48,947 nt of DNA from positions 1-48,947 of the IMG/VR virus record IMGVR_UViG_3300034158_000121. One strand, written 5' to 3'. The notes under the pieces are model-generated. The model was not told the origin of the DNA. It was given only the letters and a program-made list of their open reading frames with translations, and did not search any database. Below are positions 842 through 48,110 of the stretch, piece after piece. Both the position numbers and the translations under genes were made by a program. This DNA is from a virus. Within the stretch, counting starts at the first letter, position 1, and each line of letters opens with the position of its first letter.

Positions 842-3800
842 ATGGATAAGCCTGGACTGCGTGACGCCCTGCCACAGCCGCAACAATCCGACACCCGTAA
901 CGACCAATTTTGGGGCGACCTTGATAGCAGTCTGTCTGCCGTATCTTCCACCCCGTCCCTCTCCACCGCTGCCCCGGCTCGCAATCTTGATGTAGGGCTC
1001 GGCGATCTTGCTCGCGGCGTCGGTGCTGGCGCGCTGGATCTGGTAGGGGGGATCGGTGAGCTTGCCGGTCAAGCCAGTGCCTTCGGCAAAGAGAATGCCG
1101 GCAAGCAGGGGGGCGACTACCTGGAGCAAGCGCGAGCAAACATGGCCAGCAAGCTCAGCCCGGTGCTGGACTTCGTTGCCGGGGCCGGTGATCTGGCCAA
1201 GTCTGGCGCCGAGTCCCTGACCGAAGGCATGAGCTCTGATGCACAAGAGGCCATGAACCGCCGGCTTGTTGATGAAACACCGGAAGGTCATTTGACCATG
1301 GGGGACGGTGCGGGTGATATCGATGTCTGGGCTATGAAGATGGCACAAGGGGTTGGTTCCTTGGTGCCAACCCTGCTTGCCGGCGGCGTTACTGGGGTCG
1401 CTGCCAAGGCAACCCTGGGCCGTGCCGTGACAGCATCCATGATCAAGCGTGGCGCAACACAACAGGTGGCCGAGGCAGTGGCCGCCAAGACCGTCTCCAA
1501 GCTTGCCACTGGCGCCGCCGTCACAACCGGTGCGACCGGTTCTGTAGGCAGTGCCGGGGTAAATGCCAAAGAGTCAGTGCTTGGCATGAGCTATGACGAG
1601 CTGGCAGCGAGTGACACGTTCCGCCAGGCATTCACCCGTATCGACCAAGATCAGCAAACCCTTCACCTCACAGACGATGAGAAATTGGCACTGGCCAGGG
1701 ACGAAACCGCCAATGTAGCCAGTCGCGCGACCATGAGCGATGCCAAGACCTGGGGGGCGGCAGCCATGGGATCCATGATGGGTGACGCCATGTTGTTCAA
1801 GATGTTGGCAGGCAAGGCTGCTGCTGGCGGCATGTTGAAGGGCGCCGCCAAGGGGGCGGTGGGTGAAGGTGTTGGTGAAACTCTCGAAGAGGGTGTGCAG
1901 CAATATGCAGTGAATGAGGCGTTGAACGAGGTTGCTGCTGCCGACATCGACCCGATGAAAGGCGTGGTATCGAGCGCGCTGGAAGGTGGCCTTATCGGTA
2001 TGGGGACGGGCGGGGCCATGGGCTCTGTCGGAGGTTTGCGGGGCGGCAAGCATGCCAACCAAGAAGAAGAGGTCTCGGCTGACCCACTCATCGAGCCTGC
2101 TACGCCGGTGATGGAGGAGGCAACCCCCTTGGCGGACCCCACGCCTGGAGCGGATCCGCAACTGGCTACTGAGCAAGCGCAGACTGTGCAGCCTGATCTG
2201 GCCACTGCCGTGGATGGTCTGGCTGATCCACTGCAGGCAAACAGCGAGCAAAACCCACTCGGCCCCAGCCCAAGCCAGTTCGACGAAATGAGGGACGTGC
2301 CTGCATACCTACGACAGGACGATACTGCCGACCGATTCAAGGGAATTGCAGAGGAGAGCGAGGTGCAGGCGGCACTGGCTGAGCCTGTGGCGCTGACAGT
2401 GGACGACCTGTTGGCGAAAGCTGGGAACCAGACCGGTGATGCCGAGGTAAAAGCTACCCCGATGCCTGACGAGCCGACACTTGTGGTTTCTGACGAGAAC
2501 GTGGCAGACCCTGACGCAGGCGCACCACCTCAATCAGAAGGCATGCCTTCTCCACCTCTGATAGCTGAACCTGCGGCGGCTTCGCCTAGAGATGCCACTA
2601 TCGGCGTACTTCAGACACTGCGGATCACCAAGCGTGGCAAGCCGTTTACCAGTGAAAAAGAAGCCAAGTTGGCCAGCCGTAAGACCGAAACTCCGGTACC
2701 GCTCAATGGCGGCGGCTTTGGTGTGGCAGAGATCGCCGAGGTGGAACAAGTCAAGGGCCAGCAACCCAGTGCAAGCCAGCCGCAGCAACTTGCTCCCGCA
2801 GTCGATATCGGCTACCGGGAGGTGATCCCCGTCAACCAACCACAAACAGAGGTCAGCAATGAGCCAGTTACCCCAGTACATGCAATCGGCAGTGAACGAC
2901 AAGGTAATCAGCCAGGCGCAGGCGAACCTGCTGCAGCGGGCACTGGGAAAGCCCCTGCCGGACTCACCGAGCGAACTGGAACCGGAGATCCGACAGATCT
3001 CCCTCCTGCTCTACCTGTACCAGATGGACAGCAGCAGAATGACCCAACACTGACAACCCCGGCCACCGATGCCGGGGTTGTTGTTTCTAAGCCCGCAACT
3101 TCGACGCCCTGGACAGAGATGGTCGATAACCCTGACGGTACCCTGACCTTAAGGGGGGAGGTGCCCGCCATCAAGCAGTGGGCCAAGGATAACGGGGTGA
3201 AAGCGATTGCAGGGAAGGGCGGCATGGTGGTTGCCAAGCCGTCTGTGGCCAAGGTGCGGGAGTTCGCCATGCCTGTTGCCAGCGAACCGACGCAACAGAT
3301 CGAAGTTGCCCGTGCCGAGGTGGCGCCGGAGCCCACCGAGGCGCAGAAGGAGGACACTACATCGCCTATTGCCAACCAGCCTATGAACCAACCAGTCAAG
3401 GTGGTCAGCTTCTCCAAGCAGGCCATGGCCCAGGGGGATAAGCCAGTCAAACATCTGACTCGTAAAGAGGCTGAGTTGGTTTCCCATGGTTGGTTCAAGC
3501 AGTACCAAGGGGCGAGTGGCATCAATGTACAGATCCACGCCACACAGGCTGAGCTTGAGGGGGCCTTGGGGCTCAATGCCAAGGAAGGGCTGATCCGGCG
3601 AGCAGCGTTCGATGATGGCACCGGGTCACTGCATGTGGCCGCCGATACGATTTCTGACCCCAAGCGGATGCGCGAGATCCTGCGCCATGAAGTGCTGGCC
3701 CACTATGGCTTGGCCAATGTGCTTGGCGATGGGGAATACACCAAGTTGATGAGCCGCCTGATCCAGTCCAAGAAAGATCCAAGCATGAAGGAGGTATGGG

Positions 3801-6679
3801 ACTGGGTAGACACTCATTATGCCGACGAGGACATTGGGACCAAGGCGGAGGAGGTTGTTGCCCATCTTGCAGAGTTGGAGCAGAGCGCCTGGCGTCGTGG
3901 TTGGGATAGCGTGGTTGCTTGGGTAACTCGGGCACTGCGTGCAGTTGGTTTTGTGCCAGAGGGGATCACTGCTGCTGAGACGAGAAACCTTATCGAGGGG
4001 CTGGGCAAGAAGATGGAGCGCGGCGGCCCTGATGATAGCGGCCCTGATGGCGGTAAGAAGTTCAGCCAGGAGGAGCTGCCAGCCAAGAAGGGCGGCATCA
4101 AGATGAGTCAGACCAGCACGGCCGCTGACAAAGCCATGGAAAAGCTCAACCTGGGGCCAAAGCCTGATGTTATCGACAAAACCAAGGCCAATCTGGAGAA
4201 GCTGCGCGCAGTGGATCGCGGCGTGGTCAAGTCTTGGGTAGACCGCTTCATCAAGAAGGCTAACACCGAGGTGCTCGATGCCTTGGCTCCCATCAAGTAT
4301 GCCGAGGAGGCAGCAGGCATAACTGATGCGGCGGATTCCGGCTATGTGGCTGCACGCATGGCAACCGGGGCGGCTTCAACTATGCAGGCAACCATGCTCT
4401 ATGGTCTGCCGGAGTGGAAAGACGGCGTGATCCAGCGCAAGGCTGGCACTGGCGAGAAAGATGCATTGCTCGGCATCTTCTCTGATCTGGGGAGCGACCT
4501 TCACAACTGGCTTGGCTGGATGGCTGGCCACCGGGCAGAGATCCTGCTGGCGCAGGGGCGTGAGAACTTGCTCGATGCAAATGACATTGCAGCACTCAAG
4601 GCTCAGGGCAAAGGCAAAGAGGCCAAGTTCATGGAGGCCAAAACCCGCTGGAACCGCCTCAACGCCGCCACCTTGGATCTGGCGCAGGAGGCGGGTCTGT
4701 TTACCCAGGAGGCCCGGGCCGAGTTTGAAAGCGAGTGGTATATCCCGTTCTTCCGTGAATCTGATGATGGCGATGTGATTGCCCCATTCAAGCCGAGGGG
4801 CGTTGCCAACCAGAACGCCGGTATCAAGAAGCTCAAGGGGGGCGAGGCCAACACCAACGACCTGCTCGAGAACATCTTTACCAGCACCAGCAAGCTGATA
4901 GACGCCTCCATGAAGAACATGGCGGCCCAAAAGACGGTCTGGAATTTGGCAGAAACCGGCATCATCGAGGTAGTCGCCAAGCCCAACATGATGGACTGGC
5001 GTGCCCTCAAGAACGGGAAGGACCTGATTACTGTGAAGATGGAGGGGGAGGACTACATGATCCGGGTTGAGGATCCCGACCTTTATCGTGCAATGACTTT
5101 TTTTGATCGCAAGCCTTTCGGCGCCATGGTCAACGTGGCTGCCAAGGGGAAGCGCCTGCTGACGGCCGGGGTCACCGCATCCCCCGAGTTCATGCTTCGC
5201 AACTTCTTGCGCGACTCCCTTTCCAGTTGGGCAATCAGCAAGGATGGTTTCAAGCCGGTGATCGGCTCTATCCGTGGGGTGAAGAAGACTCTGGCGATGG
5301 ATGGTAGCACCATTGATGTCATGTTCAGCGGAGCCAGTTTCTTGGGTGGCTACGTCAACGGCAATGACCCGGGGGCGATGGCCGATACCGTGCGCAAGTC
5401 GCTGCGCCGCAAGGGGATGACACCGGAGCAGATCGCTCGTTATGAGAAGTCCATCATCCGCAATGCGGCTCATGCCAAGGGCGTTGTGGCTGACGTGTGG
5501 GAGAAGTACAGCAGACTTGGTGAGGCGGTTGAGAACGGTAACCGTGAGGCTGTATATGATGCAGCCATCAAGGCAGGCAAGAGCCACGCCCAGGCAGCCT
5601 TTGAGTCGAAGGACCTGATGGACTTCTCCATGTTGGGGGCGGCCCGCGGCATCCAAGGGGCCGCTATGGTGCTGCCATTCTTCAATGCCCGGCTCCAGGG
5701 CTTGGGCAAGCTGACGCGCGAGCTACGCGACAATCCGCGCGAAATAGCGAAGCGTGCCGGCATGATCACCGCAATGTCACTCGGGCTGCTGGCTTCCAAC
5801 TGGGATGATGAGCGGTATGAGGAGCTACCCGATTGGGACAAGGATGCCAACTGGTATTTCTTTGTCGGCGATCAGCACTGGCGGATCCCCAAGCCGTTCG
5901 AGATCGGGGTGATATTTGGCACTATCCCTGAGCGCATGGTGCGAGCCCTGGGCGACAAAGACACCGGCGCCCAGTTTGGCAAGGCTGTGGCTCGGGCAAT
6001 CGGCGATACCTTCGCCCTTAACCCGACCCCGCAGATCGTCAAGCCGATGGTGGAAGCCGCTTTCAACTATGACAGTTTCCGAGGTGGACCTATCGATAGC
6101 CCGCAGGATCTGGCCGTACGTGCCGAGGCGCGCTACAACGAGCAGACCAGCCTGCTGATGCGAGAGCTGGGCGAAGTTTCAGGGTTGTCCCCCAAGCAAC
6201 TGGAACACCTGGTGATCGGTTATACCGGTACCATGGGCAGCTATGTAATGGCTGCTGCCGACGGCATGATCCGTGCCGGAACACCAGGAGAATCCGCCAG
6301 CTGGCGCGCCGATGAGATACCTCTGGTTAAAGCCGTGTACCGTGGCACCGGGCCGGCCAAGTCCACCCAACACATGGAAGAGTTTTACCGGATGCTGAAC
6401 GAGGTGAACCAGCTAAAGCGCACAGTTGACCAGTACCGCAGCGAAGGGCTGACTGACAAGGCAAACGAGTTGCTGGAGGAACAGGGCGGGATCTTGAAGT
6501 CACGGCGCAGCCTGAGCCGTACTCAGCAGCAGGTCAGGGTGGTGCGCAACAAGATTGAGCTGATACAGCGCGACAAGACCATGGCAGCAGAAGAGAAGCG
6601 CCGGCGCATTGATGAATTGCTGGCTCGTAGGAATGACCTCGTGTACCAAGCGGTCAAAAACAACCAGAAGAATTGGTAG
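842..6679 (+). CDS. Giant virion/ejection-type polyvalent protein (1,945 aa) with zincin-like motif and LPD38-like C-terminus
   Basis: Start ATG 842 follows a GAGGA-type ribosome site. Residues about 50-400 are Gly/Ala-rich and contain helical hydrophobic stretches and a GVGETLEEGVQQYAVNEA segment, typical of DNA-ejection proteins of podovirus-like phages. Residues about 400-900 are a low-complexity Pro/Glu/Thr linker. At 949-954 is HEVLAH in the context RHEVLAHYG, followed by an acidic helix (EEVVAHLAELE), which resembles a phage zincin-like protease site; the spacing is HExxxH rather than classic HExxH. Residues from about 1430 contain ASPEFMLRNFLRDS, the pattern I associate with LPD38 domains of large polyvalent phage proteins. 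The C-terminus (about 1860-1945) is a basic coiled coil. Likely a virion protein injected with the DNA; the enzymatic role is inferred. Confidence 0.7.
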   Translation: MDKPGLRDALPQPQQSDTRNDQFWGDLDSSLSAVSSTPSLSTAAPARNLDVGLGDLARGVGAGALDLVGGIGELAGQASAFGKENAGKQGGDYLEQARANMASKLSPVLDFVAGAGDLAKSGAESLTEGMSSDAQEAMNRRLVDETPEGHLTMGDGAGDIDVWAMKMAQGVGSLVPTLLAGGVTGVAAKATLGRAVTASMIKRGATQQVAEAVAAKTVSKLATGAAVTTGATGSVGSAGVNAKESVLGMSYDELAASDTFRQAFTRIDQDQQTLHLTDDEKLALARDETANVASRATMSDAKTWGAAAMGSMMGDAMLFKMLAGKAAAGGMLKGAAKGAVGEGVGETLEEGVQQYAVNEALNEVAAADIDPMKGVVSSALEGGLIGMGTGGAMGSVGGLRGGKHANQEEEVSADPLIEPATPVMEEATPLADPTPGADPQLATEQAQTVQPDLATAVDGLADPLQANSEQNPLGPSPSQFDEMRDVPAYLRQDDTADRFKGIAEESEVQAALAEPVALTVDDLLAKAGNQTGDAEVKATPMPDEPTLVVSDENVADPDAGAPPQSEGMPSPPLIAEPAAASPRDATIGVLQTLRITKRGKPFTSEKEAKLASRKTETPVPLNGGGFGVAEIAEVEQVKGQQPSASQPQQLAPAVDIGYREVIPVNQPQTEVSNEPVTPVHAIGSERQGNQPGAGEPAAAGTGKAPAGLTERTGTGDPTDLPPALPVPDGQQQNDPTLTTPATDAGVVVSKPATSTPWTEMVDNPDGTLTLRGEVPAIKQWAKDNGVKAIAGKGGMVVAKPSVAKVREFAMPVASEPTQQIEVARAEVAPEPTEAQKEDTTSPIANQPMNQPVKVVSFSKQAMAQGDKPVKHLTRKEAELVSHGWFKQYQGASGINVQIHATQAELEGALGLNAKEGLIRRAAFDDGTGSLHVAADTISDPKRMREILRHEVLAHYGLANVLGDGEYTKLMSRLIQSKKDPSMKEVWDWVDTHYADEDIGTKAEEVVAHLAELEQSAWRRGWDSVVAWVTRALRAVGFVPEGITAAETRNLIEGLGKKMERGGPDDSGPDGGKKFSQEELPAKKGGIKMSQTSTAADKAMEKLNLGPKPDVIDKTKANLEKLRAVDRGVVKSWVDRFIKKANTEVLDALAPIKYAEEAAGITDAADSGYVAARMATGAASTMQATMLYGLPEWKDGVIQRKAGTGEKDALLGIFSDLGSDLHNWLGWMAGHRAEILLAQGRENLLDANDIAALKAQGKGKEAKFMEAKTRWNRLNAATLDLAQEAGLFTQEARAEFESEWYIPFFRESDDGDVIAPFKPRGVANQNAGIKKLKGGEANTNDLLENIFTSTSKLIDASMKNMAAQKTVWNLAETGIIEVVAKPNMMDWRALKNGKDLITVKMEGEDYMIRVEDPDLYRAMTFFDRKPFGAMVNVAAKGKRLLTAGVTASPEFMLRNFLRDSLSSWAISKDGFKPVIGSIRGVKKTLAMDGSTIDVMFSGASFLGGYVNGNDPGAMADTVRKSLRRKGMTPEQIARYEKSIIRNAAHAKGVVADVWEKYSRLGEAVENGNREAVYDAAIKAGKSHAQAAFESKDLMDFSMLGAARGIQGAAMVLPFFNARLQGLGKLTRELRDNPREIAKRAGMITAMSLGLLASNWDDERYEELPDWDKDANWYFFVGDQHWRIPKPFEIGVIFGTIPERMVRALGDKDTGAQFGKAVARAIGDTFALNPTPQIVKPMVEAAFNYDSFRGGPIDSPQDLAVRAEARYNEQTSLLMRELGEVSGLSPKQLEHLVIGYTGTMGSYVMAAADGMIRAGTPGESASWRADEIPLVKAVYRGTGPAKSTQHMEEFYRMLNEVNQLKRTVDQYRSEGLTDKANELLEEQGGILKSRRSLSRTQQQVRVVRNKIELIQRDKTMAAEEKRRRIDELLARRNDLVYQAVKNNQKNW

Positions 6680-15984: not shown

Positions 15985-16411
15985 CACGAAAAATCTGGAT
16001 CTGTTCGCCGATGACCATGAATCTCTGGGGCAGTTGGTGGACCGGCTCGACCAGATCCCTGTCGCTGAGCTGACGGCCAAATGGCCCAAGGCACTGGCCG
16101 AACTGGTGGATGTGCTGGCCAGCGAACTGGGTCGAGGTGGTATGGCACCTGATCTTGCCCGTGCTCAGGCCCGCAAACTGGCACTGGTGCAGGCCCATTA
16201 CATGGGCGGCCGCGCCTACTACATCCCAACCGGAGAGCATCTCAAGGCAGCCCTGCGTGACCGGGCCATCTGGGATGAGTTCAATGGCCGCAATATAGAC
16301 CAGTTGGCCCGCAAGCACGGGCTCTCTGTGCCGCAGACCTATGCCGTTGTGGCAGAACAGCGGCGGTTAAGTCGTTGCTCTTATCAAAAAGATCTATTTG
16401 CTAATAGCTGA
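15974..16411 (+). CDS. mor: Mor-type middle/late transcription activator
   Basis: The 145-residue protein fits the Mu Mor/C family. It has a helical dimerisation half (LGQLVDRLDQIPVAELTAKWP, then VLASELGRGGMAPDLARAQ), a central YYIPTGE turn (about 76-82) and a C-terminal helix-turn-helix (about 104-132, NIDQLARKHGLSVPQTYAVV). Mor binds a dyad upstream of a promoter that lacks a good -35 and recruits RNA polymerase. No second activator (C) is seen, so this protein may drive all late promoters, including the CCATAAACCC sites. A terminator follows 27 nt downstream. Confidence 0.88.
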   Translation: MDANTKNLDLFADDHESLGQLVDRLDQIPVAELTAKWPKALAELVDVLASELGRGGMAPDLARAQARKLALVQAHYMGGRAYYIPTGEHLKAALRDRAIWDEFNGRNIDQLARKHGLSVPQTYAVVAEQRRLSRCSYQKDLFANS

Positions 16412-16437
16412 GGATGGAAATTGAATTTAGTTTTTTA

Positions 16438-16461
16438 GTGGCCCTGAAGGGCCACTTTTAA
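16438..16461 (+). terminator. Intrinsic terminator of the early/middle operon
   Basis: GTGGCCC, loop TGAA, GGGCCAC, then TTTTAAT. It closes the early operon just before the convergent nuclease/ATPase cargo. Confidence 0.85.
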
Positions 16462-16472
16462 TGAATAAGTTT

Positions 16473-17318
16473 TCAGAACTCATTGAAGCCTTTGTCGCAA
16501 AACCAATCACTCTCTATGAAAGCTTCATATGTAGCCGTTCTCCAGCTATTTAATTTCGCAATACGGCAACTTTCAGCACGAGATTTTAACTCAACCTTTA
16601 CCAGATTTTTTCCTCCAGCTATATGCATGTTATTTAATTGATGGCGGATGTTAATTATCTCATCAGCACTCTCTGATGAATAAAGAGTGTTCAAATTTAA
16701 ACTGTCAAAGTGGGACTCAACTCTAGAAAACAATACATCACCCCAGGCATCAGGCTGCTTTACATAAAATAAAACTGCAGCTGGGGAACCAGGGATTACT
16801 TTTGCGAACAACCAACGCTCATCTTCTATATTATCAAAGTAAGGGTGTATTGATTCTTCGCTAGAATTTAGTGGTAATTTTGCAAGCTTTGCTTTATTAC
16901 AATCACCACAAGCAGGCACTAAATTGAGTGGTGCTACAGAAAGTATTGGATACTGAGACTTTGGTAGGTGATGGTCAAGGGTCGAAACTGTTCTCTGGCC
17001 ACACAATGCACATTTTCCATTGGGGGCAGAAGTAAATAGCTTGTCGTATACATCACGGCCCGGAGCTTTTTTCTTGGCCATTCTTTGTGTGTAAATAGAC
17101 TCCATTTCGGCAGTGCTAACAATTCCTTCGATAACCCCTTCCCGTACAAACTGATGTAGGAGTGTTTGTGATGCGAGAGCATCAAATAGTTCCGAAGCTT
17201 CAGCGACATTTTCCGCTATACTTGATAACCGTCTCTTTAAATCAGGGTCGCGAATTCTACTAATGCAGGTAATATATACGGCTTTAGCATCAAAAGGTGG
17301 AGGGTCGAGCTTAATCAT
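16473..17318 (-). CDS. HNH endonuclease of Septu-like defence pair (PtuB-like)
   Basis: The 281-residue protein has an HNH core: zinc-binding C103xxC106, DHH at 115-117, N132, and C137xxC140 followed by N141. The N-terminal 100 residues are helical and the C-terminal half has no known pattern. Its start overlaps the ATPase stop (TAATG), so the two are translationally coupled. HNH nuclease plus ABC-type ATPase is the composition of Septu (PtuAB) systems. An HNH protein this long with this ATPase type may be a variant. The gene is AT-rich relative to the phage and runs against the phage operon. Anti-phage function is inferred from composition and location. Confidence 0.8.
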   Translation of the reverse strand: MIKLDPPPFDAKAVYITCISRIRDPDLKRRLSSIAENVAEASELFDALASQTLLHQFVREGVIEGIVSTAEMESIYTQRMAKKKAPGRDVYDKLFTSAPNGKCALCGQRTVSTLDHHLPKSQYPILSVAPLNLVPACGDCNKAKLAKLPLNSSEESIHPYFDNIEDERWLFAKVIPGSPAAVLFYVKQPDAWGDVLFSRVESHFDSLNLNTLYSSESADEIINIRHQLNNMHIAGGKNLVKVELKSRAESCRIAKLNSWRTATYEAFIESDWFCDKGFNEF

Positions 17319-18862
17319 TATTCGATCTCTCTATTAATCAATAATGCCCTAACTAATGCGCGAGCCTCGCCGCCAAGTTTTTTATTGAATTTATCAACAA
17401 CATCCTCGAAATCATCATATTCCTCAATAGATTCTCTTAACAATTGGTGGTAGCCTGAATGAGTTACTTCCAATCCAAAAATCTCTCTGGTTAAAACTCC
17501 AACATTCTCCCCAAAAGTCTCGATGTTAGGGCGTTCAACGGTGACGGTTCTACCACTGCGCTGGATTTTCCAAACACAACTTTGTGGTACTTCTTGTAAA
17601 ATAACGGGCGAATGTGTTGCAATAATTGCTACGCCATTACGGTTAACTAATAAGTCGGAAAGAGCTCGAATAAATGCAGATAACAGTGGGGGGTGAAGAT
17701 GTGCTTCGGGTTCATCAAGTAAAACAAGGGTTCGTTCTTCTACAGTTTCGACCAATCGTGTGATTGTTAATAGAACTATTTTATGCCCAGAACTTAAACT
17801 ATTGAATAGTTCTCGTGCTGATGCAGTAGTCAAAGCCTCATCATCACTCTCATCTGCAAGCGAAGCTACTTCGGCCGCTTTGAAGATTGGGTCTGTCTCC
17901 AACATTTGTAGTGCTCTACGCCAACGAACGAGACGAGCTCCTTGACAACAAGATATTGCGCTAGCTCCAAACTCAGTAGATAAACGTTCCGGTGATTTAG
18001 GAGCGAGTGGTTTACCTTCTCTACTTTTTCCTGGGCGTTTTAAACCCACATATGCACATGGTAAGCCCTCAGACTTATCACGTCGATTGGGCAAAGCATC
18101 AAATGGATCAAACGCACTAAAGGTTACCGAGACTAAGTTGGCGAAAAGATCAATACTATCTTGAATACCATCTCCCTCAAATGTTCCAAAAGAATTGTTA
18201 CCAGACTTGATATCTATGAGAGTTCTAGACATGTTATTTAATAGATGGGTTTTACCTACACCATTACGACCTATTAGTACATGAATGTTTGTTGGCGGCA
18301 TGGATAATGGCTTGACTTTGAACGATAGTGTAGTGGTTGATTGAGATTTGCGGCGAGGAACAGGTGTGGTATATGAAAAATTGAATTTAGATAGCCTTAC
18401 CCCCCCTCTTGCTAATCGGGCAAACTGCCCTAGGACTGTTGCTCTATTAACGGATCTAAGCAAGGATACGCCAGTTACCTTTTCTTTCAGTGCTCGCTGG
18501 AATAGCTCTGAGTCGAGGGCTACATCACAAAGGCAACGTAAGATCTTGTCACGCAATTCTGGGCCTAATTTGTTTAGGCCTTCGTAGTAACTATCATCTT
18601 GCCCTAATGAAAAAAACGCCTCATTAAGACTCTCAAATGTCTCAGGGAGCTCAGGCCTTTTTTGCCCCTCTTTCATCGAAAATTGAGCGATCTTAACCTC
18701 ACCAATACGGTGTTTTTCACCGTTTTCATCAAAAACGAATAGTATGTAGAGCGTGTTGAATTTGAACCAGTCATCCCAGCCATCAGTCAGTAGAAAAGCT
18801 TGTGATTTTGCGACTGTGGGGGAGCGCTGCCCGTTAGGTAGTAACGTAAAATATTGGGACAT
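17318..18862 (-). CDS. ABC/AAA-type ATPase of Septu-like defence pair, with N-terminal extension (PtuA-like)
   Basis: The 514-residue protein has a Walker A (GRNGVGKTH, about 196-204), an ABC-signature-like LSSGHK, a Walker B LVLLDEPEAHLHP and an H-loop IATHSP. It is therefore a complete SMC/OLD-like ATPase, but with no Toprim domain after it. Unlike most Septu ATPases, about 190 residues precede Walker A. This extension opens with a beta-rich piece (FTLLPNGQRS, DDWFKFNTLYILFVF) and looks like a separate sensor domain. It is the first gene of the two-gene cargo operon and would gate the HNH partner. No strong ribosome site is visible before the start. Confidence 0.8.
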   Translation of the reverse strand: MSQYFTLLPNGQRSPTVAKSQAFLLTDGWDDWFKFNTLYILFVFDENGEKHRIGEVKIAQFSMKEGQKRPELPETFESLNEAFFSLGQDDSYYEGLNKLGPELRDKILRCLCDVALDSELFQRALKEKVTGVSLLRSVNRATVLGQFARLARGGVRLSKFNFSYTTPVPRRKSQSTTTLSFKVKPLSMPPTNIHVLIGRNGVGKTHLLNNMSRTLIDIKSGNNSFGTFEGDGIQDSIDLFANLVSVTFSAFDPFDALPNRRDKSEGLPCAYVGLKRPGKSREGKPLAPKSPERLSTEFGASAISCCQGARLVRWRRALQMLETDPIFKAAEVASLADESDDEALTTASARELFNSLSSGHKIVLLTITRLVETVEERTLVLLDEPEAHLHPPLLSAFIRALSDLLVNRNGVAIIATHSPVILQEVPQSCVWKIQRSGRTVTVERPNIETFGENVGVLTREIFGLEVTHSGYHQLLRESIEEYDDFEDVVDKFNKKLGGEARALVRALLINREIE

Positions 18863-18971
18863 AGAAGGTAAACTCGCGAGATTTTAAACATTCTTAGGTA
18901 AGTTTTTTAAAATCATACGCATATCTTAAAAAAAGGATGGGATCTAGTTGGCAAAAAACACTTCTAACCCA

Positions 18972-26993: not shown

Positions 26994-27902
26994 TCAGCAG
27001 CACTGAATAGATTCAGGCGTTGGGGTGGTGATGATCTTCGATGTGTCGCCACGGCCAGAATACAGGAAGAACTCGCCTTGATATCCCAATAGCCTGAGGA
27101 GGTACTCTGTGATGGCATCGCGACACAGTGAGAACTGTTTGCCCATGTCTTCAGGCGATAACTCACAAAGGCCGCTGTGGATGATATCGTTTCTGAGATT
27201 TGCCCAAGTGTCAGTTTCAGGCATACCGACTTGCTTGAACATCTCTTTTACTAGAGGGGCATAATCTAAGGTTTTGCCATCACTGTTACGGTAGCGACCT
27301 TTCTTGAATTGATATACACCAGCTGCATAAGAAGCCTTGAGATTTTCCAAAAGGATAAAGGTCGTTGCCAACTTGAGCTCTAGCGGGAGCTGCCTCGCAT
27401 CAGGAATAGTAAACAAGTCAATTGCCACGTGTAGCTTTCTGATTGCTCGAAGTTTGCTATAGATTTGCCAACAACTCTCAATGAAGCTGACTGCCTGGCC
27501 AGATCTTATTAAACAAAATGGTGGTCTGAAGGCTGAGTAGCAGCCAACAATCGACAGTCTTCTACCTTGGCAGGCGTTGAGGCTTTCTCCACTGACGAGT
27601 TTCCAGCCTATGAAACCGACTTGGGAGTTGGTGGCAAGAGAAAGCATCTCAGTCAGCATCGTGATGTTTAACTCAAGGTCATCAATCGACGTCAGGTTTT
27701 TGATAAAGATCTGAGATGTTTGGATGAACTGACCCTGTAGTTCGCTCTGCTTAGATTTGAGAACATCCATATCTTGTGTGAGCAGCATGCTATAACCGAA
27801 GGCCGATAATGGTATGTTATTTCTTACCCAACTACCGTCGGGCTTATCTGTGACAGTAATTCCATTAAGGGGAAGATTAGACAGATAACAGATCACATCC
27901 AT
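26994..27902 (-). CDS. HEPN-motif protein, candidate anti-phage RNase (cargo)
   Basis: The 302-residue protein has a C-terminal helical region with R237-N-x3-H242 (LRNDIIHSG), the RNase motif of HEPN domains, preceded by helices that resemble the HEPN four-helix bundle (about 172-245). The first 170 residues, beta-rich with paired cysteines, look like a separate sensor or binding domain. This two-part build resembles ApeA-like HEPN defence proteins. The gene is less GC-rich than the phage, runs against it, and sits between two late blocks with a late-promoter motif upstream of the following block. Defence role is inferred. Confidence 0.7.
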   Translation of the reverse strand: MDVICYLSNLPLNGITVTDKPDGSWVRNNIPLSAFGYSMLLTQDMDVLKSKQSELQGQFIQTSQIFIKNLTSIDDLELNITMLTEMLSLATNSQVGFIGWKLVSGESLNACQGRRLSIVGCYSAFRPPFCLIRSGQAVSFIESCWQIYSKLRAIRKLHVAIDLFTIPDARQLPLELKLATTFILLENLKASYAAGVYQFKKGRYRNSDGKTLDYAPLVKEMFKQVGMPETDTWANLRNDIIHSGLCELSPEDMGKQFSLCRDAITEYLLRLLGYQGEFFLYSGRGDTSKIITTPTPESIQCC

Positions 27903-32233: not shown

Positions 32234-32719
32234 TTAATCCCACATATGACCAGTGAAAGAATCGGAATCTTGAATTTTTAGTAACTGCGACTCTTCATAT
32301 TTATATCCAAACCAGCCTTCATAGGTTATTAAAATTGAGATTTTCGAGCCATATATCCAAAATCCGCTGTTGTTTACCCCTGTAAAACCAAAGCTACAGC
32401 TTGTTGCATCGCCATTCTGCAATATATATATGGGGTTTTGGTTTATAGAATACAGCCATTTTTCCTGATTTTCTACTGATGAGGCAGACCCAAGCGCTTG
32501 ACTAGCCTCGGTTTCGTTGATTTTTATAGTTATGTTTTTTGCTGGAATAGTGCCAGAATTCATTATTTTTAAAGAGTAAGTGATTGCTGTGTTCCCTCCT
32601 TTTACTGTTCTGACAGATGCTGTGACAATTGGCCTGAATTGCTTTCGCCAGAATACTAAGGTCATTGAAAGCGCAAGAATGGAAACTATTAATGAAACTA
32701 GAGCTATTTGGGTGTCCAC
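32234..32719 (-). CDS. Membrane-anchored cargo protein (161 aa)
   Basis: The 161-residue product begins with one membrane helix (about 5-24, IALVSLIVSILALSMTLVFW), followed by a beta-rich domain of Ig-like or beta-sandwich character (ITYSLKIMNSGTIPAKNITI, then CSFGFTGVNNSG). It is strongly AT-rich and minus-strand. It is the last gene of a three-gene minus-strand cluster with a HEPN-type protein and a DUF1780-type nuclease. No family is recognised. Confidence 0.7.
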   Translation of the reverse strand: MDTQIALVSLIVSILALSMTLVFWRKQFRPIVTASVRTVKGGNTAITYSLKIMNSGTIPAKNITIKINETEASQALGSASSVENQEKWLYSINQNPIYILQNGDATSCSFGFTGVNNSGFWIYGSKISILITYEGWFGYKYEESQLLKIQDSDSFTGHMWD

Positions 32720-32758
32720 AGTATTACCCCTCGCATTTACATTTGATGTAAAACAGTG

Positions 32759-33157
32759 TCACTCTGGCAAGTTGCTTTGATTGATATTTAACTTGGAAAT
32801 TATTTCGCTGAAAAATTCCATTTCAGAACATAGTGAGTTTGCACGATTGATGAAATCATTTAACTCTAAGCTATCGCAAGGGTATTCAGATAGGTTTGAG
32901 TGTAATCTATGAACAAAATAATTTCTTTGTTGATATATAAAATGAAGGTGTTCAGATGCGGTTGATGTAATTCTTTTAGTATCAGTAAGGCGTTTAACAA
33001 GAGGGCCTAATGTTGCTTTTTCATGGGGTACACTACCAGTGGCGACCAGGAAACCTTTTATGCAGGACTCTAGCCTTGCGGAGGACATGGTAAGTTTACC
33101 TATCAATTTAGTAAATTCTTCGTTTGAATATAACGCTTTATAAAATGAATTTTCCAT
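32759..33157 (-). CDS. Small HEPN-motif protein (132 aa), candidate toxin/defence RNase
   Basis: The start at 33157 (GAG at six bases) is preferred over an upstream TTG at 33184. The product is all helical and contains R78-N-x3-H83 (QQRNYFVHRLHS), the HEPN RNase motif, with a helix before it that starts with SSARLESCIKGF. Single-domain HEPN proteins of this size are often toxins or cOA-type/abortive-infection RNases. The neighbour upstream in the operon is a DUF1780-type nuclease. Function inferred from the motif. Confidence 0.65.
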   Translation of the reverse strand: MENSFYKALYSNEEFTKLIGKLTMSSARLESCIKGFLVATGSVPHEKATLGPLVKRLTDTKRITSTASEHLHFIYQQRNYFVHRLHSNLSEYPCDSLELNDFINRANSLCSEMEFFSEIISKLNINQSNLPE

Positions 33158-33228
33158 AAAGATCTCAATGTATTTGTCTAGCAAAGAAAGCTAAGTTTAT
33201 GTCGGTCAAACGAATCAATAGGTACCTG

Positions 33229-33858
33229 TTATGCCCATTTTTTTCGTTGTAGTTGGCCTACGTCTGTCTGTAACCAAGAGGGGGCGTCGGGGGATGCATA
33301 GAAGCAGCATGCTACCTCACCTTGGATAAAGGAGATTGATCGCCAACCACAAGATGTGAGGGTTGTTATGTCAGGGAAAGGTATTTCATCAATTGTGAAT
33401 ATATGTCTTAAATTTACATAAAATAGCAAATCCATATTGGAGCGAAGATTGGCAGGGTATTTTTTTTGTAATTTGTTTATTTCCTCACAGCAATACTGGA
33501 AAATCTCTTGCACTGAACAAGGAACAGGTGTGAATGTGGTGAGCAAATCATGAGGGTTTGAGATTGTTTTTGCTCTTATCAAAGAGTCTTTATATTCCTT
33601 ATGCCGTTTTCGACCTTCATCGAGTATCTCTTTGATTTCAAAACGGCCTCCTAGGGCTAAGACGTCTGGTGGATCCTGATCTGGAGATACAATGTCGTTA
33701 TCATTGTGCGGGATATTCATATTCTCTAACAATTTATCAACTACCCAGCGCTCCCGCTCAGACTTGCTCTTAGAGGAAAAAAAACAAACTGACGCCTCTA
33801 AATCTTCAATGCTATCCGCTATAAATTTGGCCTCATCCACCATATATTCCTCCGACAT
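33229..33858 (-). CDS. DUF1780-type putative nuclease (cargo)
   Basis: The 209-residue protein carries D65 (DPPDVLALG) and E74-x-K76 (RFEIKEILDEGRKRHKEYK), the arrangement of a PD-(D/E)xK nuclease, and the surrounding sequence fits DUF1780. The first 45 residues are helical (ERERWVVDKLLENM). A C-terminal part has beta strands and cysteines. ATG 33858 is preceded on its strand by a purine-rich stretch and is the first gene of the minus-strand cluster. Defence role is inferred from its companions. Confidence 0.75.
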   Translation of the reverse strand: MSEEYMVDEAKFIADSIEDLEASVCFFSSKSKSERERWVVDKLLENMNIPHNDNDIVSPDQDPPDVLALGGRFEIKEILDEGRKRHKEYKDSLIRAKTISNPHDLLTTFTPVPCSVQEIFQYCCEEINKLQKKYPANLRSNMDLLFYVNLRHIFTIDEIPFPDITTLTSCGWRSISFIQGEVACCFYASPDAPSWLQTDVGQLQRKKWA

Positions 33859-33961
33859 ATTTATTAGTCATGTTCTATCAGTCCTTTCCAACGTTATAGG
33901 TCTGACGGATACAGCGTAACTAAGTATTTTCAGCCTTCCTGTGATATGCCTCAGTAATTGA

Positions 33962-33971
33962 CCATAAACCC
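33962..33971 (+). promoter_or_regulatory. CCATAAACCC late-promoter motif, duplicated copy before decayed tape-measure start
   Basis: Preceded by GTAATTGA and followed 10 nt later by CCATCCCTTTACCAT, nearly the same as the copy at 35473. It lies 59 nt before the decayed ATG at 34021. It was duplicated together with the tape-measure 5' end. Confidence 0.6.
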
Positions 33972-34020
33972 TCTCATATTGCCATCCCTTTACCATGGGG
34001 CATATCTGAATCTGATTGGA

Positions 34021-34223
34021 ATGTCCACCTCTTCCACGCTGAAACTCGCCCTAGAGCTGGCGGCCAAGGTCACCAGTCGCGAGTAGCTGATCCGGCAGTT
34101 CAATGATACTAATGTCGTCCTGATCTAACTCGAACTAGCGACCGTGTAGATCCGTGGCAGGTAGATGTTGATACGTGCCAAGTAGCAAGCTGGCTAGGGC
34201 TAGGTGGGATGCAAAGGCGCTGA
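34021..34223 (+). pseudogene. Decayed duplicate of the tape-measure 5' end
   Basis: Starts ATGTCCACCTCTTCCACG as the intact gene at 35538, and follows it closely for about 60 bases (LKLALELAAKV equivalent). A stop (TAG at 34084-34086) then interrupts it. About 120 bases present in the intact gene are missing, and the rest (to about 34223, GGATGCAAAGGCGCTG) matches with many substitutions and further stops. The upstream 85 bases, including the late-promoter motif, are also duplicated. Confidence 0.85.
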
Positions 34224-34262
34224 TGACGTTGGGAAAAGTGGGTTTGTGTGAAGCTTATTTTT

Positions 34263-34562
34263 TTAGCGCAATGCCAGCAGCTTTAGCATGGCCAGAGGTT
34301 GGGAAGAGGCGGAGATGGGTAGAATGGCATTTTCTAACCACTGCCAATCCAGTGGTGGATTACCCTGCTTGAACTTCTGGTAGGGCACCCCTTTCTTGAC
34401 TGTCAAAAACAGGGTGCATGGTGTGTCTGCGCGACAGATGTAGCGCACCATCACCTCCCCCTGGAGGGATTGCAGCAGATGCTTCAGGATCGGTAGCCCG
34501 TGGACCGTTTGGTGACCACCTTCATACCAGACGCCAAATTTGTGCATGTATCGTTGTTCCAT
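34263..34562 (-). CDS. Small cargo ORF of unknown function (99 aa)
   Basis: A minus-strand ORF of 99 codons if started at ATG 34562; the same frame is open to 34772, but that part crosses the decayed tail-tube copy. The product is basic and mixed alpha/beta (GGHQTVHGLPILKHLLQSL, then FLTVKKGVPYQKFKQGN). No family is recognised and no strong ribosome site is visible. It may be a remnant of cargo trapped between the two decayed phage fragments. Confidence 0.35.
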   Translation of the reverse strand: MEQRYMHKFGVWYEGGHQTVHGLPILKHLLQSLQGEVMVRYICRADTPCTLFLTVKKGVPYQKFKQGNPPLDWQWLENAILPISASSQPLAMLKLLALR

Positions 34563-34644
34563 CGTGCAGCAGAACTTGAGTATTGATCCGCAAGGTGTAC
34601 TTGCCACTGTCAGAAGTGACAGGTGGTTGCATTGCCAGTGAGTT

Positions 34645-34718
34645 AGCTGGAAGAGGAGCTGCTGGCCGTGGATGGCGAGATAGTCCCCTTGTATGTGGAT
34701 CGGCCGGAGATGGCGTGA
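34645..34718 (+). pseudogene. Decayed duplicate of the tail-tube 3' end
   Basis: Matches the final part of the intact tail-tube gene (about 32092-32163): GGAGCTGCTGGCC, GGATGGCGAGA and TATGTGGATCGGCC are shared, with substitutions, and it ends with a TGA (34716-34718) at the equivalent place. It is followed, as in the intact copy, by a GC terminator. Confidence 0.8.
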
Positions 34719-34730
34719 GTGTTGAGAAAT

Positions 34731-34758
34731 AAAAAAAAGGCGGGGAAACCCGCCGTTT
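34731..34758. terminator. Bidirectional terminator copy
   Basis: GGCGGG, loop GAAA, CCCGCC (34739-34754), followed by GTTTAT on the plus strand and by eight T on the minus strand. It is related to the terminator at 32174. It would also end the minus-strand membrane-protein gene that stops at 34783. Confidence 0.8.
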
Positions 34759-34782
34759 ATAGTATTAGTCATTCAGTCTTTA

Positions 34783-35355
34783 TTACGGTAGGCCAGCATC
34801 ATGATATTGACGGTACTCGTTAGCATAATAAAGTAAATCATGATATTCACTCTTTGCTTTTTGAAAGTTTTTTTCTTTTTTTGCATTGTATATGCGGCCT
34901 ACATGCATTGATATCCTGTCGTGAACAGTATCCCACATGATAAACTCCACAGTACTCTCTGGTGCGAACCGCCTAATAATAAACTCGTTTTTATTCATGA
35001 TGGCTACGTATTTTTTAAAGTGATGATAATATGGTTCAAGTTCACCAATGATTGATTCCAATTCTTCATTTTCCATGTACAGATAGCGTTCAGTTTTTTG
35101 AATGATGTTGTAAAACTCATCGTACAATGAGTTCATGGAATCAATATATCGTGGGTATAACAACTGGCGTTGCCATGATTTGTAGGCACCAAACGCTACG
35201 ATTAGTGTGAGTCCGCCGATAAAAGCTTGGCTTATCGCAGCGATAGCTGAAAGTGCAGATGTATATGAGATATTTTCTTCAGAAATAACTAAGCCGACCA
35301 TTACACCAACGGTTATCAGACCGAAGACAACAATTATAATTGAACAGTTTTTCAT
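34783..35355 (-). CDS. Two-helix membrane protein (190 aa), cargo
   Basis: The 190-residue product has two N-terminal membrane helices (about 5-24 and 36-58), then a cytoplasmic-type helical region of about 130 residues rich in Tyr, Glu and Lys (LYDEFYNIIQKTERYLYMENE). It is strongly AT-rich and transcribed against the phage operon. No family is recognised. The build, two helices plus a soluble helical domain, is common in membrane-acting defence and superinfection-exclusion proteins, but that is only an analogy. Confidence 0.75.
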   Translation of the reverse strand: MKNCSIIIVVFGLITVGVMVGLVISEENISYTSALSAIAAISQAFIGGLTLIVAFGAYKSWQRQLLYPRYIDSMNSLYDEFYNIIQKTERYLYMENEELESIIGELEPYYHHFKKYVAIMNKNEFIIRRFAPESTVEFIMWDTVHDRISMHVGRIYNAKKEKNFQKAKSEYHDLLYYANEYRQYHDAGLP

Positions 35356-47750: not shown

Positions 47751-47790
47751 TGGTGGAGCTGGGGGGATTTGAACCCCCGTCCAAAATTAC
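47751..47790. other. Probable attachment site of the resident prophage in the ssrA 3' end
   Basis: The resident prophage sequence runs directly up to the tRNA-like 3' end of ssrA. The other copy of the core, expected as a partial ssrA duplicate near the integrase at the far end of the prophage, lies outside the window, so the exact core cannot be set. Confidence 0.5.
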
Positions 47791-48110
47791 TACATCCTCG
47801 GTACTACATGCTTAGTCACTCTTTACATTCGCCAACCCGCTGCGGAGAGACACGCCACGAATTGACTAGCTCGATTGGTTTTAATGCTTCCGCCCCGAGC
47901 AGGACTTCCACACGATCCTGTGAAGGATGACCTTCCGATTCCCTAGGACACAGGCAAGCTAGGGTAGAAGGGCTCTATGCAGGTTATTAAGCTGCTAGTG
48001 CGTAGTTTTCGTCGTTTGCGACTATTTTTTTGCGGTTTGTTAACGAGGCCTACCGCACCTCGGCATGCACCTTGGGTTTCGTGAATCTTGTCGAATCCAG
48101 AATCAGCCCC
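47751..48110 (-). ncRNA. ssrA: tmRNA (ssrA)
   Basis: On the minus strand it begins GGGGCTGATTCTGGATTCGA at 48110, the conserved tmRNA 5' end. It finishes with GGTTCAAATCC and AGCTCCACCA at 47751, the tRNA-like acceptor with encoded CCA. The tag frame at 48019-47987 reads ANDENYALAA followed by TAA. It rescues stalled ribosomes together with SmpB, which is encoded next door. Its 3' end is a common phage attachment site, and the resident prophage begins immediately beyond it, leaving the gene intact. Confidence 0.97.

What the first reader, a model, noticed from the sequence alone, without database searches (positions are those of the whole stretch)
16473..18862. Septu-like ATPase-HNH pair with a long N-terminal extension on the ATPase
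Two coupled genes (TAATG) give a complete ABC-type ATPase and an HNH nuclease. The ATPase has about 190 residues ahead of Walker A, which is not the usual PtuA layout, and the HNH partner has a further 140-residue C-terminal half of unknown fold. This could be a Septu variant or a distinct system.
Basis: partly seen in the sequence, partly recalled or inferred. Interest (0 to 1): 0.7.

Follow-up and report, generated by a model that had tools for sequence, protein, structure and literature searches.

The report
Septu-like defence pair in Mu-like prophage
A Mu-like virus sleeping in a bacterial genome carries, in a slot its close relatives fill with other accessory genes, a two-gene ATPase-nuclease system that probably protects the host from rival viruses; the same gene pair sits in phage lambda as the never-explained genes ea59 and ea31.

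Summary
On the minus strand a 514-aa ABC-type ATPase (17318-18862) overlaps by one base (TAATG) a 281-aa four-Cys HNH nuclease (16473-17318). The long N-terminus is not peculiar to this locus: 121 relatives with a full-length ATPase have Walker A at about residue 197, and all loci with enough sequence keep the HNH partner. PADLOC already holds the family as defence candidate PDC-M01 (E 2.5e-210, 4.2e-109), and one of its PtuA1 models matches the ATPase full length. The ATPase core (about 155-514) and the whole HNH protein have solved Septu/retron PtuA and PtuB as best structural matches, so the HNH C-terminal half corresponds to PtuB's. The first ~155 ATPase residues are a conserved domain that PtuA lacks and that matched nothing. 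The pair is homologous to phage lambda Ea59-Ea31, whose function I found nowhere. It fills a sharp-edged, GC-poor cargo slot of a Mu-like prophage; 33 compared prophages carry other genes there. Some relatives sit inside type I restriction operons. Most likely it is prophage-carried, Septu-like anti-phage defence; trigger and target are unknown. A new member of a catalogued kind; the lambda link is the interesting part.

The parts
17318..18862 (-). ATPase gene (514 aa), PDC-M01A / Ea59 family, PtuA-like ABC ATPase
   Evidence: PADLOC PDC-M01A 2.5e-210 and PtuA1 PDLC00282 1.3e-200; phrog_8066; lambda Ea59 42.6% over 99%; model pLDDT 93.9
18401..18862 (-). N-terminal domain of the ATPase, residues 1-154 (beta strands then helices), not present in canonical PtuA
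   Evidence: PtuA alignments start at model residue about 145-160; conserved in 40 sequences; no PDB-sequence or Pfam family found
18248..18271 (-). Walker A GRNGVGKT, residues 198-205 (K204 invariant)
17783..17794 (-). ABC signature SSGH, residues 357-360
   Evidence: S357, S358, G359 invariant in 79 sequences
17693..17728 (-). Walker B LVLLDEPEAHLH, residues 379-390
   Evidence: D383 E384 P385 E386 H388 L389 H390 invariant
16473..17318 (-). HNH nuclease gene (281 aa), PDC-M01B / Ea31 family, PtuB-like
   Evidence: PADLOC PDC-M01B 4.2e-109; phrog_10378; model pLDDT 97.2; best folds all PtuB
16887..17012 (-). HNH core, residues 103-144: CxxC, DH, N, CxxCN, K
   Evidence: C103 C106 D115 H116 C137 C140 invariant in 93 of 93 partners
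16476..16886 (-). C-terminal half of the HNH protein (residues 145-281), corresponds to the C-terminal half of PtuB
   Evidence: VIA-align to 8eea_G and 9u9y_H spans model 1-270 / 1-266; hhalign to PtuB reaches residue 212
17318..17322 (-). TAATG stop/start overlap, translational coupling signal
   Evidence: overlap or a 0-15 base gap in 113 of 113 relatives scored
16364..18964 (.). variable cargo slot of the Mu-like prophage, from the 3' end of mor to just before the endolysin gene
   Evidence: similarity to sibling prophages stops at about 16359-16370 and resumes at about 18952-18965 in nearly all; slot GC 0.410 against 0.594 for the rest of the prophage
16437..16456 (+). GC-rich hairpin (GTGGCCC-TGAA-GGGCCAC) between the mor gene and the end of the HNH gene
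   Evidence: fold -16.1 kcal/mol, z -3.1; the terminator scan, which asks for a longer T run, did not list it

Best explanation
The pair is a prophage-carried anti-phage defence system of the PDC-M01 (lambda Ea59-Ea31) family, which works like Septu. Shown here: a coupled ABC-type ATPase and HNH nuclease with intact, strictly conserved catalytic residues, predicted PtuA-like and PtuB-like folds, carried as cargo in a Mu-like prophage. Inferred: in the lysogen the two proteins form an ATP-bound complex that holds the nuclease inactive; infection by another phage changes the ATP state or is sensed through the extra N-terminal ATPase domain; the HNH subunit then cleaves a nucleic acid (phage DNA, or a host tRNA as in PtuAB of retron-Eco7 and Septu EcB88) and stops phage production.
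For: PADLOC candidate-defence models match both proteins full length. The top structural matches of the HNH model are nine PtuB chains, Z 8.7-11.0, next hit Z 6.0; the top 18 rows of the ATPase model are PtuA, Z 14.4-16.9. Profile comparison: A3 against PtuA 99.1%, E 5.5e-19; A4 against PtuB 97.0%, E 8.9e-11. Catalytic residues invariant in 79 ATPases and 93 HNH partners; the partner was found in every relative with enough sequence. Relatives lie inside type I restriction operons, hsdM-hsdS-[pair]-hsdR in L070, next to hsdR in L074 and hsdS in L021, beside an MvaI/BcnI R-M system on a plasmid, in an ICE and in prophages. The slot is an accessory-gene slot: 33 compared prophages, 47 cargo ORFs in 32 clusters. 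PtuAB depletes or cleaves tRNA-Tyr in retron-Eco7 and Septu EcB88 (PMC11555353, PMC13096335).
Against: No PDC-M01 member, lambda Ea59-Ea31 included, was found tested for phage protection in the papers searched. Sequence similarity to PtuA outside the Walker B / H-loop region is weak (113 aligned columns). Most other cargo in sibling slots matched no defence model, so the slot itself does not prove defence.
Confidence: 0.68

Rival explanations
1. The pair serves the phage itself: an ATP-driven endonuclease acting in phage DNA replication, packaging or recombination, which is why lambda and Mu-like phages carry it.
For: Present in lambda and many other temperate phages; lambda ea59 is listed as 'ATP-dependent endonuclease' in one essentiality study (PMC10695390).
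Against: ea59 and ea31 are non-essential in lambda. 33 compared Mu-like prophages do without the pair. Many relatives are in bacterial chromosomes, plasmids and ICEs across many phyla, some inside restriction operons.
Confidence: 0.12
2. Homing-type selfish endonuclease: the HNH enzyme cuts pair-free relatives at the slot and spreads the pair by repair.
For: HNH fold; the pair sits in a slot with sharp edges.
Against: The slot holds dozens of unrelated cargoes with the same edges, so the pair is not needed for insertion; relatives occupy unrelated sites; a conserved ABC ATPase partner is foreign to homing enzymes.
Confidence: 0.04
3. Accessory subunits of restriction systems, or an anti-plasmid / DNA-end processing complex, rather than an independent anti-phage system.
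For: Embedded in type I R-M operons in L070, L074, L021 and beside MvaI/BcnI in L016.
Against: Most loci, this one included, have no R-M genes next to the pair.
Confidence: 0.1
4. True Septu in the strict sense: identical trigger and target to a characterised PtuAB, the N-terminal domain being decorative.
For: PADLOC PtuA1 model matches full length; fold matches.
Against: Extra conserved 155-residue domain with invariant residues such as W29, D31, G54, K57, Y93, R136; HNH signature is DH in 93 of 93 here and EH in 22 of 22 PtuB; HNH N-terminus about 65 residues longer.
Confidence: 0.06

Closest known systems
PADLOC candidate system PDC-M01 (PDC-M01A + PDC-M01B)
   Same: Both proteins match full length; same gene order and coupling.
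   Different: Nothing found; the window pair is a member. PDC-M01 is itself an untested candidate as far as the papers searched show.
Phage lambda Ea59 and Ea31 (b region)
   Same: Homologous pair, same order, overlapping genes; ATPase 42.6% identical over 99%, HNH 26% overall; the lambda proteins match the same PDC-M01 models at 3.9e-201 and (another M01B model) 5.8e-113.
   Different: Different phage type and site (next to attP in lambda); the window ATPase groups with a betaproteobacterial chromosomal copy (support 0.997), not with lambda, so the captures look separate.
Septu (PtuA + PtuB), e.g. E. coli Septu 8EEA
   Same: PtuA-like core and C-terminal tail, PtuB-like whole HNH protein, same gene order.
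   Different: Extra ~155-aa N-terminal ATPase domain, ~65 extra N-terminal residues on the HNH protein, DH instead of EH in the HNH motif.
Retron type I-A effectors PtuA-PtuB (Ec78/Eco7, Ec83)
   Same: Closest solved folds.
   Different: No reverse transcriptase or msr/msd in the slot; NCBIfam PtuA equivalog scores 55.6 bits against a cut-off of 500.

Membership tests
PDC-M01 (PADLOC) | ATPase matches a PDC-M01A model over its length | tested here: met
   PDLC04235, 2.5e-210, residues 5-512
PDC-M01 (PADLOC) | HNH protein matches a PDC-M01B model over its length | tested here: met
   PDLC04264, 4.2e-109, residues 1-279
PDC-M01 (PADLOC) | two genes adjacent, ATPase first | tested here: met
   TAATG overlap; 113 relatives alike
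PDC-M01 (PADLOC) | protects against phage | not testable with these tools
   needs plating; no published test found
Septu | PtuA: ABC ATPase core with PtuA fold and C-terminal tail | tested here: met
   8eea_C Z 16.4, rmsd 5.8, 292 aligned, model 160-514; 9nnb_F Z 16.9, rmsd 5.0, 304 aligned
Septu | PtuA sequence model | tested here: met
   PADLOC PtuA1 PDLC00282 1.3e-200 over residues 4-512; the other listed PtuA1 models have their best match in the core only
Septu | canonical PtuA layout without a long N-terminal domain | tested here: not met
   197 residues ahead of Walker A here, 29-124 in 20 PtuA-type proteins
Septu | PtuB fold over the whole HNH protein | tested here: met
   8eea_G Z 9.3, rmsd 6.0, 204 aligned, model 1-270; the high rmsd suggests shifted domains
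Septu | PtuB sequence model | tested here: inconclusive
   no PtuB1 model among the best 25 PADLOC hits; hhalign to 22 PtuB 97.0%, E 8.9e-11; HNH motif DH not EH
Retron type I-A | reverse transcriptase and msr/msd next to ptuAB | tested here: not met
   the slot holds only the two genes
Retron type I-A | NCBIfam PtuA equivalog NF041760 above cut-off | tested here: not met
   55.6 bits, cut-off 500
lambda Ea59-Ea31 family | homology of both genes in the same order | tested here: met

The most novel reading that the evidence does not exclude
PDC-M01/Ea59-Ea31 is a separate, retron-independent class of PtuAB-like immune nuclease whose own N-terminal domain (not found in Pfam or, by sequence, in the PDB) is the infection sensor or gate; temperate phages, phage lambda included, carry it to exclude rivals, which would give the lambda b-region genes ea59 and ea31 a function.
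Probability: 0.4. Interest if true: 0.72.

Novelty: new member of a known kind. Interest (0 to 1): 0.5.

Why it matters
The pair itself is a member of a catalogued but, as far as I could find, untested candidate defence family. What it adds is a direct, cheap test of an old question: the function of ea59 and ea31 in phage lambda. Fold and profile evidence now says these proteins are PtuA- and PtuB-like, so lambda lysogens with and without them can be challenged with a phage panel. It also points to a recurring cargo slot in this group of Mu-like phages that can be mined for other accessory systems, and marks a conserved N-terminal domain as the first thing to solve in this family.

Tried and rejected
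(1) 'Long N-terminus is a locus-specific novelty': rejected, it is standard in 121 relatives. (2) 'HNH C-terminal half is an unknown fold': rejected, it aligns with PtuB. (4) Apparent absence of the HNH partner in some relatives: due to contig ends, open-frame rules, a frameshift or an insertion. (5) My first HNH regular expression missed a number of partners; the alignment showed that all 93 keep the Cys4 and DH residues. (6) Promoter scan upstream of the ATPase: one -35/-10-like site at 18910-18881, no more than chance. (7) Relatives by kinship are not available because the window is a virus record. (8) Defence identity of the other slot cargoes: mostly no family. (9) Literature link between Ea59/Ea31 and Septu or defence: none in the held library, which lacks bioRxiv and most subscription journals; the structural paper on PtuAB assembly is not held.

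Full report
Observation. Walker A GRNGVGKT begins at residue 198 (lysine K204), the ABC signature SSGH is at 357-360, Walker B at 379-386. The HNH motif is C103-C106, D115-H116, N132, C137-C140-N141, K144. No frame damage is visible; profiles and homologues align over residues 5-512 and 1-279.

What the family is. PADLOC's best matches are the candidate defence system PDC-M01: PDC-M01A 2.5e-210 for the ATPase and PDC-M01B 4.2e-109 for the HNH protein, both full length. PADLOC's PtuA1 model PDLC00282 also matches the ATPase full length at 1.3e-200, so this long form had already been filed among PtuA sequences. NCBIfam's retron PtuA equivalog is far below its cut-off (55.6 of 500 bits). PHROGs list the two as phrog_8066 (unknown) and phrog_10378 (HNH endonuclease). 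One survey reports that a number of PADLOC PDC-M01 calls coincide with Septu calls in Bacillus cereus group genomes (PMC11811056).

Phage lambda. tblastn against phage records finds lambda Ea59 (42.6% over 99%) and Ea31, in the same order and overlapping. The lambda proteins match PDC-M01A and PDC-M01B models at 3.9e-201 and 5.8e-113. Both lambda genes are non-essential (PMC10695390), and many genes of the lambda b2 region had no known function (PMC3224144). I found no paper that assigns Ea59/Ea31 a function or links them to Septu, within a library that lacks bioRxiv and most subscription journals.

Distribution and anatomy. Of 121 full-length ATPases the median Walker A position is 197, and 113 have a same-strand partner overlapping or within 15 bases. 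The remaining cases are contig ends, an undetected open frame, a frameshift or an insertion; a homologous HNH stretch was found wherever the sequence continued far enough. C103, C106, D115, H116, C137 and C140 are invariant in 93 HNH partners, and Walker A, Walker B and H-loop residues are invariant in 79 ATPases. This points to selection on both activities as a unit.

Structure. AlphaFold2 models from alignments of window and relative sequences have mean pLDDT 97.2 (HNH) and 93.9 (ATPase). The nine best structural matches of the HNH model are PtuB chains of Septu and type I-A retrons (Z 8.7-11.0, 188-204 residues, model 1 to 265-274, rmsd about 6); the next, a plain HNH enzyme, has Z 6.0. For the ATPase the top 18 rows are PtuA chains (Z 14.4-16.9), ahead of generic ABC ATPases at 14.3 and below, and they cover model residues about 145-514, most of them including the C-terminal tail. 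Residues 1 to about 145-154 are not covered. Profile-profile comparison with PtuA and PtuB sets gathered from enterobacterial genomes gives 99.1% (113 columns) and 97.0% (111 columns reaching past the HNH motif). So the HNH C-terminal half is PtuB-like, and the extra material is N-terminal in both proteins: about 155 residues on the ATPase and about 65 on the HNH protein (the motif starts near residue 38 in retron PtuB and at 103 here). The HNH motif also differs: DH in 93 of 93 here, EH in 22 of 22 PtuB.

The N-terminal domain. It is predicted as five beta strands followed by helices, with invariant L24, W29, D31, G54, K57, F76, Y93, D113, S133, R136 and G153 in 40 sequences. Searches of PDB sequences and Pfam found no family. 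I could not fold it alone, so its fold is untested. Its conservation and its absence from PtuA make it the best candidate for family-specific sensing or gating (inference).

Where it sits. The window is a virus record with a Mu-like prophage: MuA, MuB, a phrog_846 protein, a phrog_286 protein, a Mor/C-like activator, endolysin, terminase. The pair lies between the activator gene (mor) and the endolysin gene, in antisense to the phage genes. In 33 prophages in which both flanks were found (29 with Mor 74-94% and endolysin 71-99% identical, four more distant), the interval is 440-4583 bp and holds 47 cargo ORFs in 32 clusters, none of them this pair. Nucleotide similarity to the close siblings breaks at window positions about 16359-16370 and 18952-18965 in nearly all of them. 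The pair is 41.7% GC against 59.4% for the rest of the prophage and is close to the lowest-GC stretch. It is therefore gained cargo in an accessory slot. Two siblings carry cargoes with PADLOC matches (an RmrA-like protein; an HNH-ATPase pair); most tested cargoes match nothing, so the slot is not proven to be a defence slot. In a tree the window ATPase groups with a betaproteobacterial chromosomal copy (0.997), apart from lambda, pointing to separate captures.

Defence context of relatives. In marine gammaproteobacterium HTCC2143 (L070) the order is hsdM-hsdS-[pair]-hsdR with gaps of 0 and 17 bases; in a Sulfurimonas MAG (L074) the pair overlaps hsdR; in L021 it follows a methylase-like gene and hsdS. 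On an Acinetobacter plasmid it follows an MvaI/BcnI-type R-M system. In E. coli it occurs inside an ICE and beside icd next to prophage remains.

How it most likely works. Shown: domain content, intact catalytic residues, PtuA/PtuB-like predicted folds, coupling, cargo status. From the literature: PtuAB of retron-Eco7 depletes tRNA-Tyr and Septu EcB88 cleaves it, and Septu EcB88 needs both Walker and HNH residues (PMC11555353, PMC13096335); the first paper also cites nicked DNA as the target of another Septu. Inferred: an ATP-gated ATPase complex restrains the HNH nuclease and releases it on infection. I put 0.68 on anti-phage defence by a Septu-like mechanism and do not choose between tRNA and DNA as the target.

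Verdict. Real and well formed, a new member of the catalogued candidate PDC-M01; Septu-like in fold but not canonical Septu. The homology to lambda Ea59-Ea31 makes it more than routine.

Noticed in passing
L070:4544-13710; L074:5707-13410; L021:4547-10383: Relatives of the pair sit inside or directly beside type I restriction-modification operons, co-directional (hsdM-hsdS-[pair]-hsdR in L070).
   Followed up: yes
L036:5800-7944, L054:793-2763, L069:64-1383; also L013:1778-3877: A gene of about 440-714 aa lies upstream of the pair in several unrelated loci, 21-58 bases away in three of them (the L036, L054 and L069 proteins are related to one another; those of L036, L054 and L013 have no Pfam match): possible third component in a subset.
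   Followed up: partly
L152-L231, interval mor to endolysin: Hypervariable cargo slot with sharp edges in this group of Mu-like prophages; cargoes include an RmrA-like protein (L156:6061-7248) and an HNH + ATPase pair resembling PDC-M68 (L190:4356-6966).
   Followed up: partly
window 32234-35355, minus strand: A second block of minus-strand ORFs in the late region, including a DUF1780 putative endonuclease (33229-33858); may be another cargo region.
   Followed up: no
window 26994-27902, minus strand: 302-aa ORF of no Pfam family, antisense between structural genes of the prophage.
   Followed up: no
window 842-6679: 1945-aa ORF with a large-polyvalent-protein domain (LPD38) left of the Mu-like prophage, suggesting a second mobile element abutting it.
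   Followed up: no
window 47751-48110, minus strand: tmRNA gene with tag ANDENYALAA near the right end of the record, so the record probably includes host sequence.
   Followed up: no
L089:9571-11756: HNH partner gene split: its two halves lie about 1.3 kb apart, as if by an insertion.
   Followed up: no
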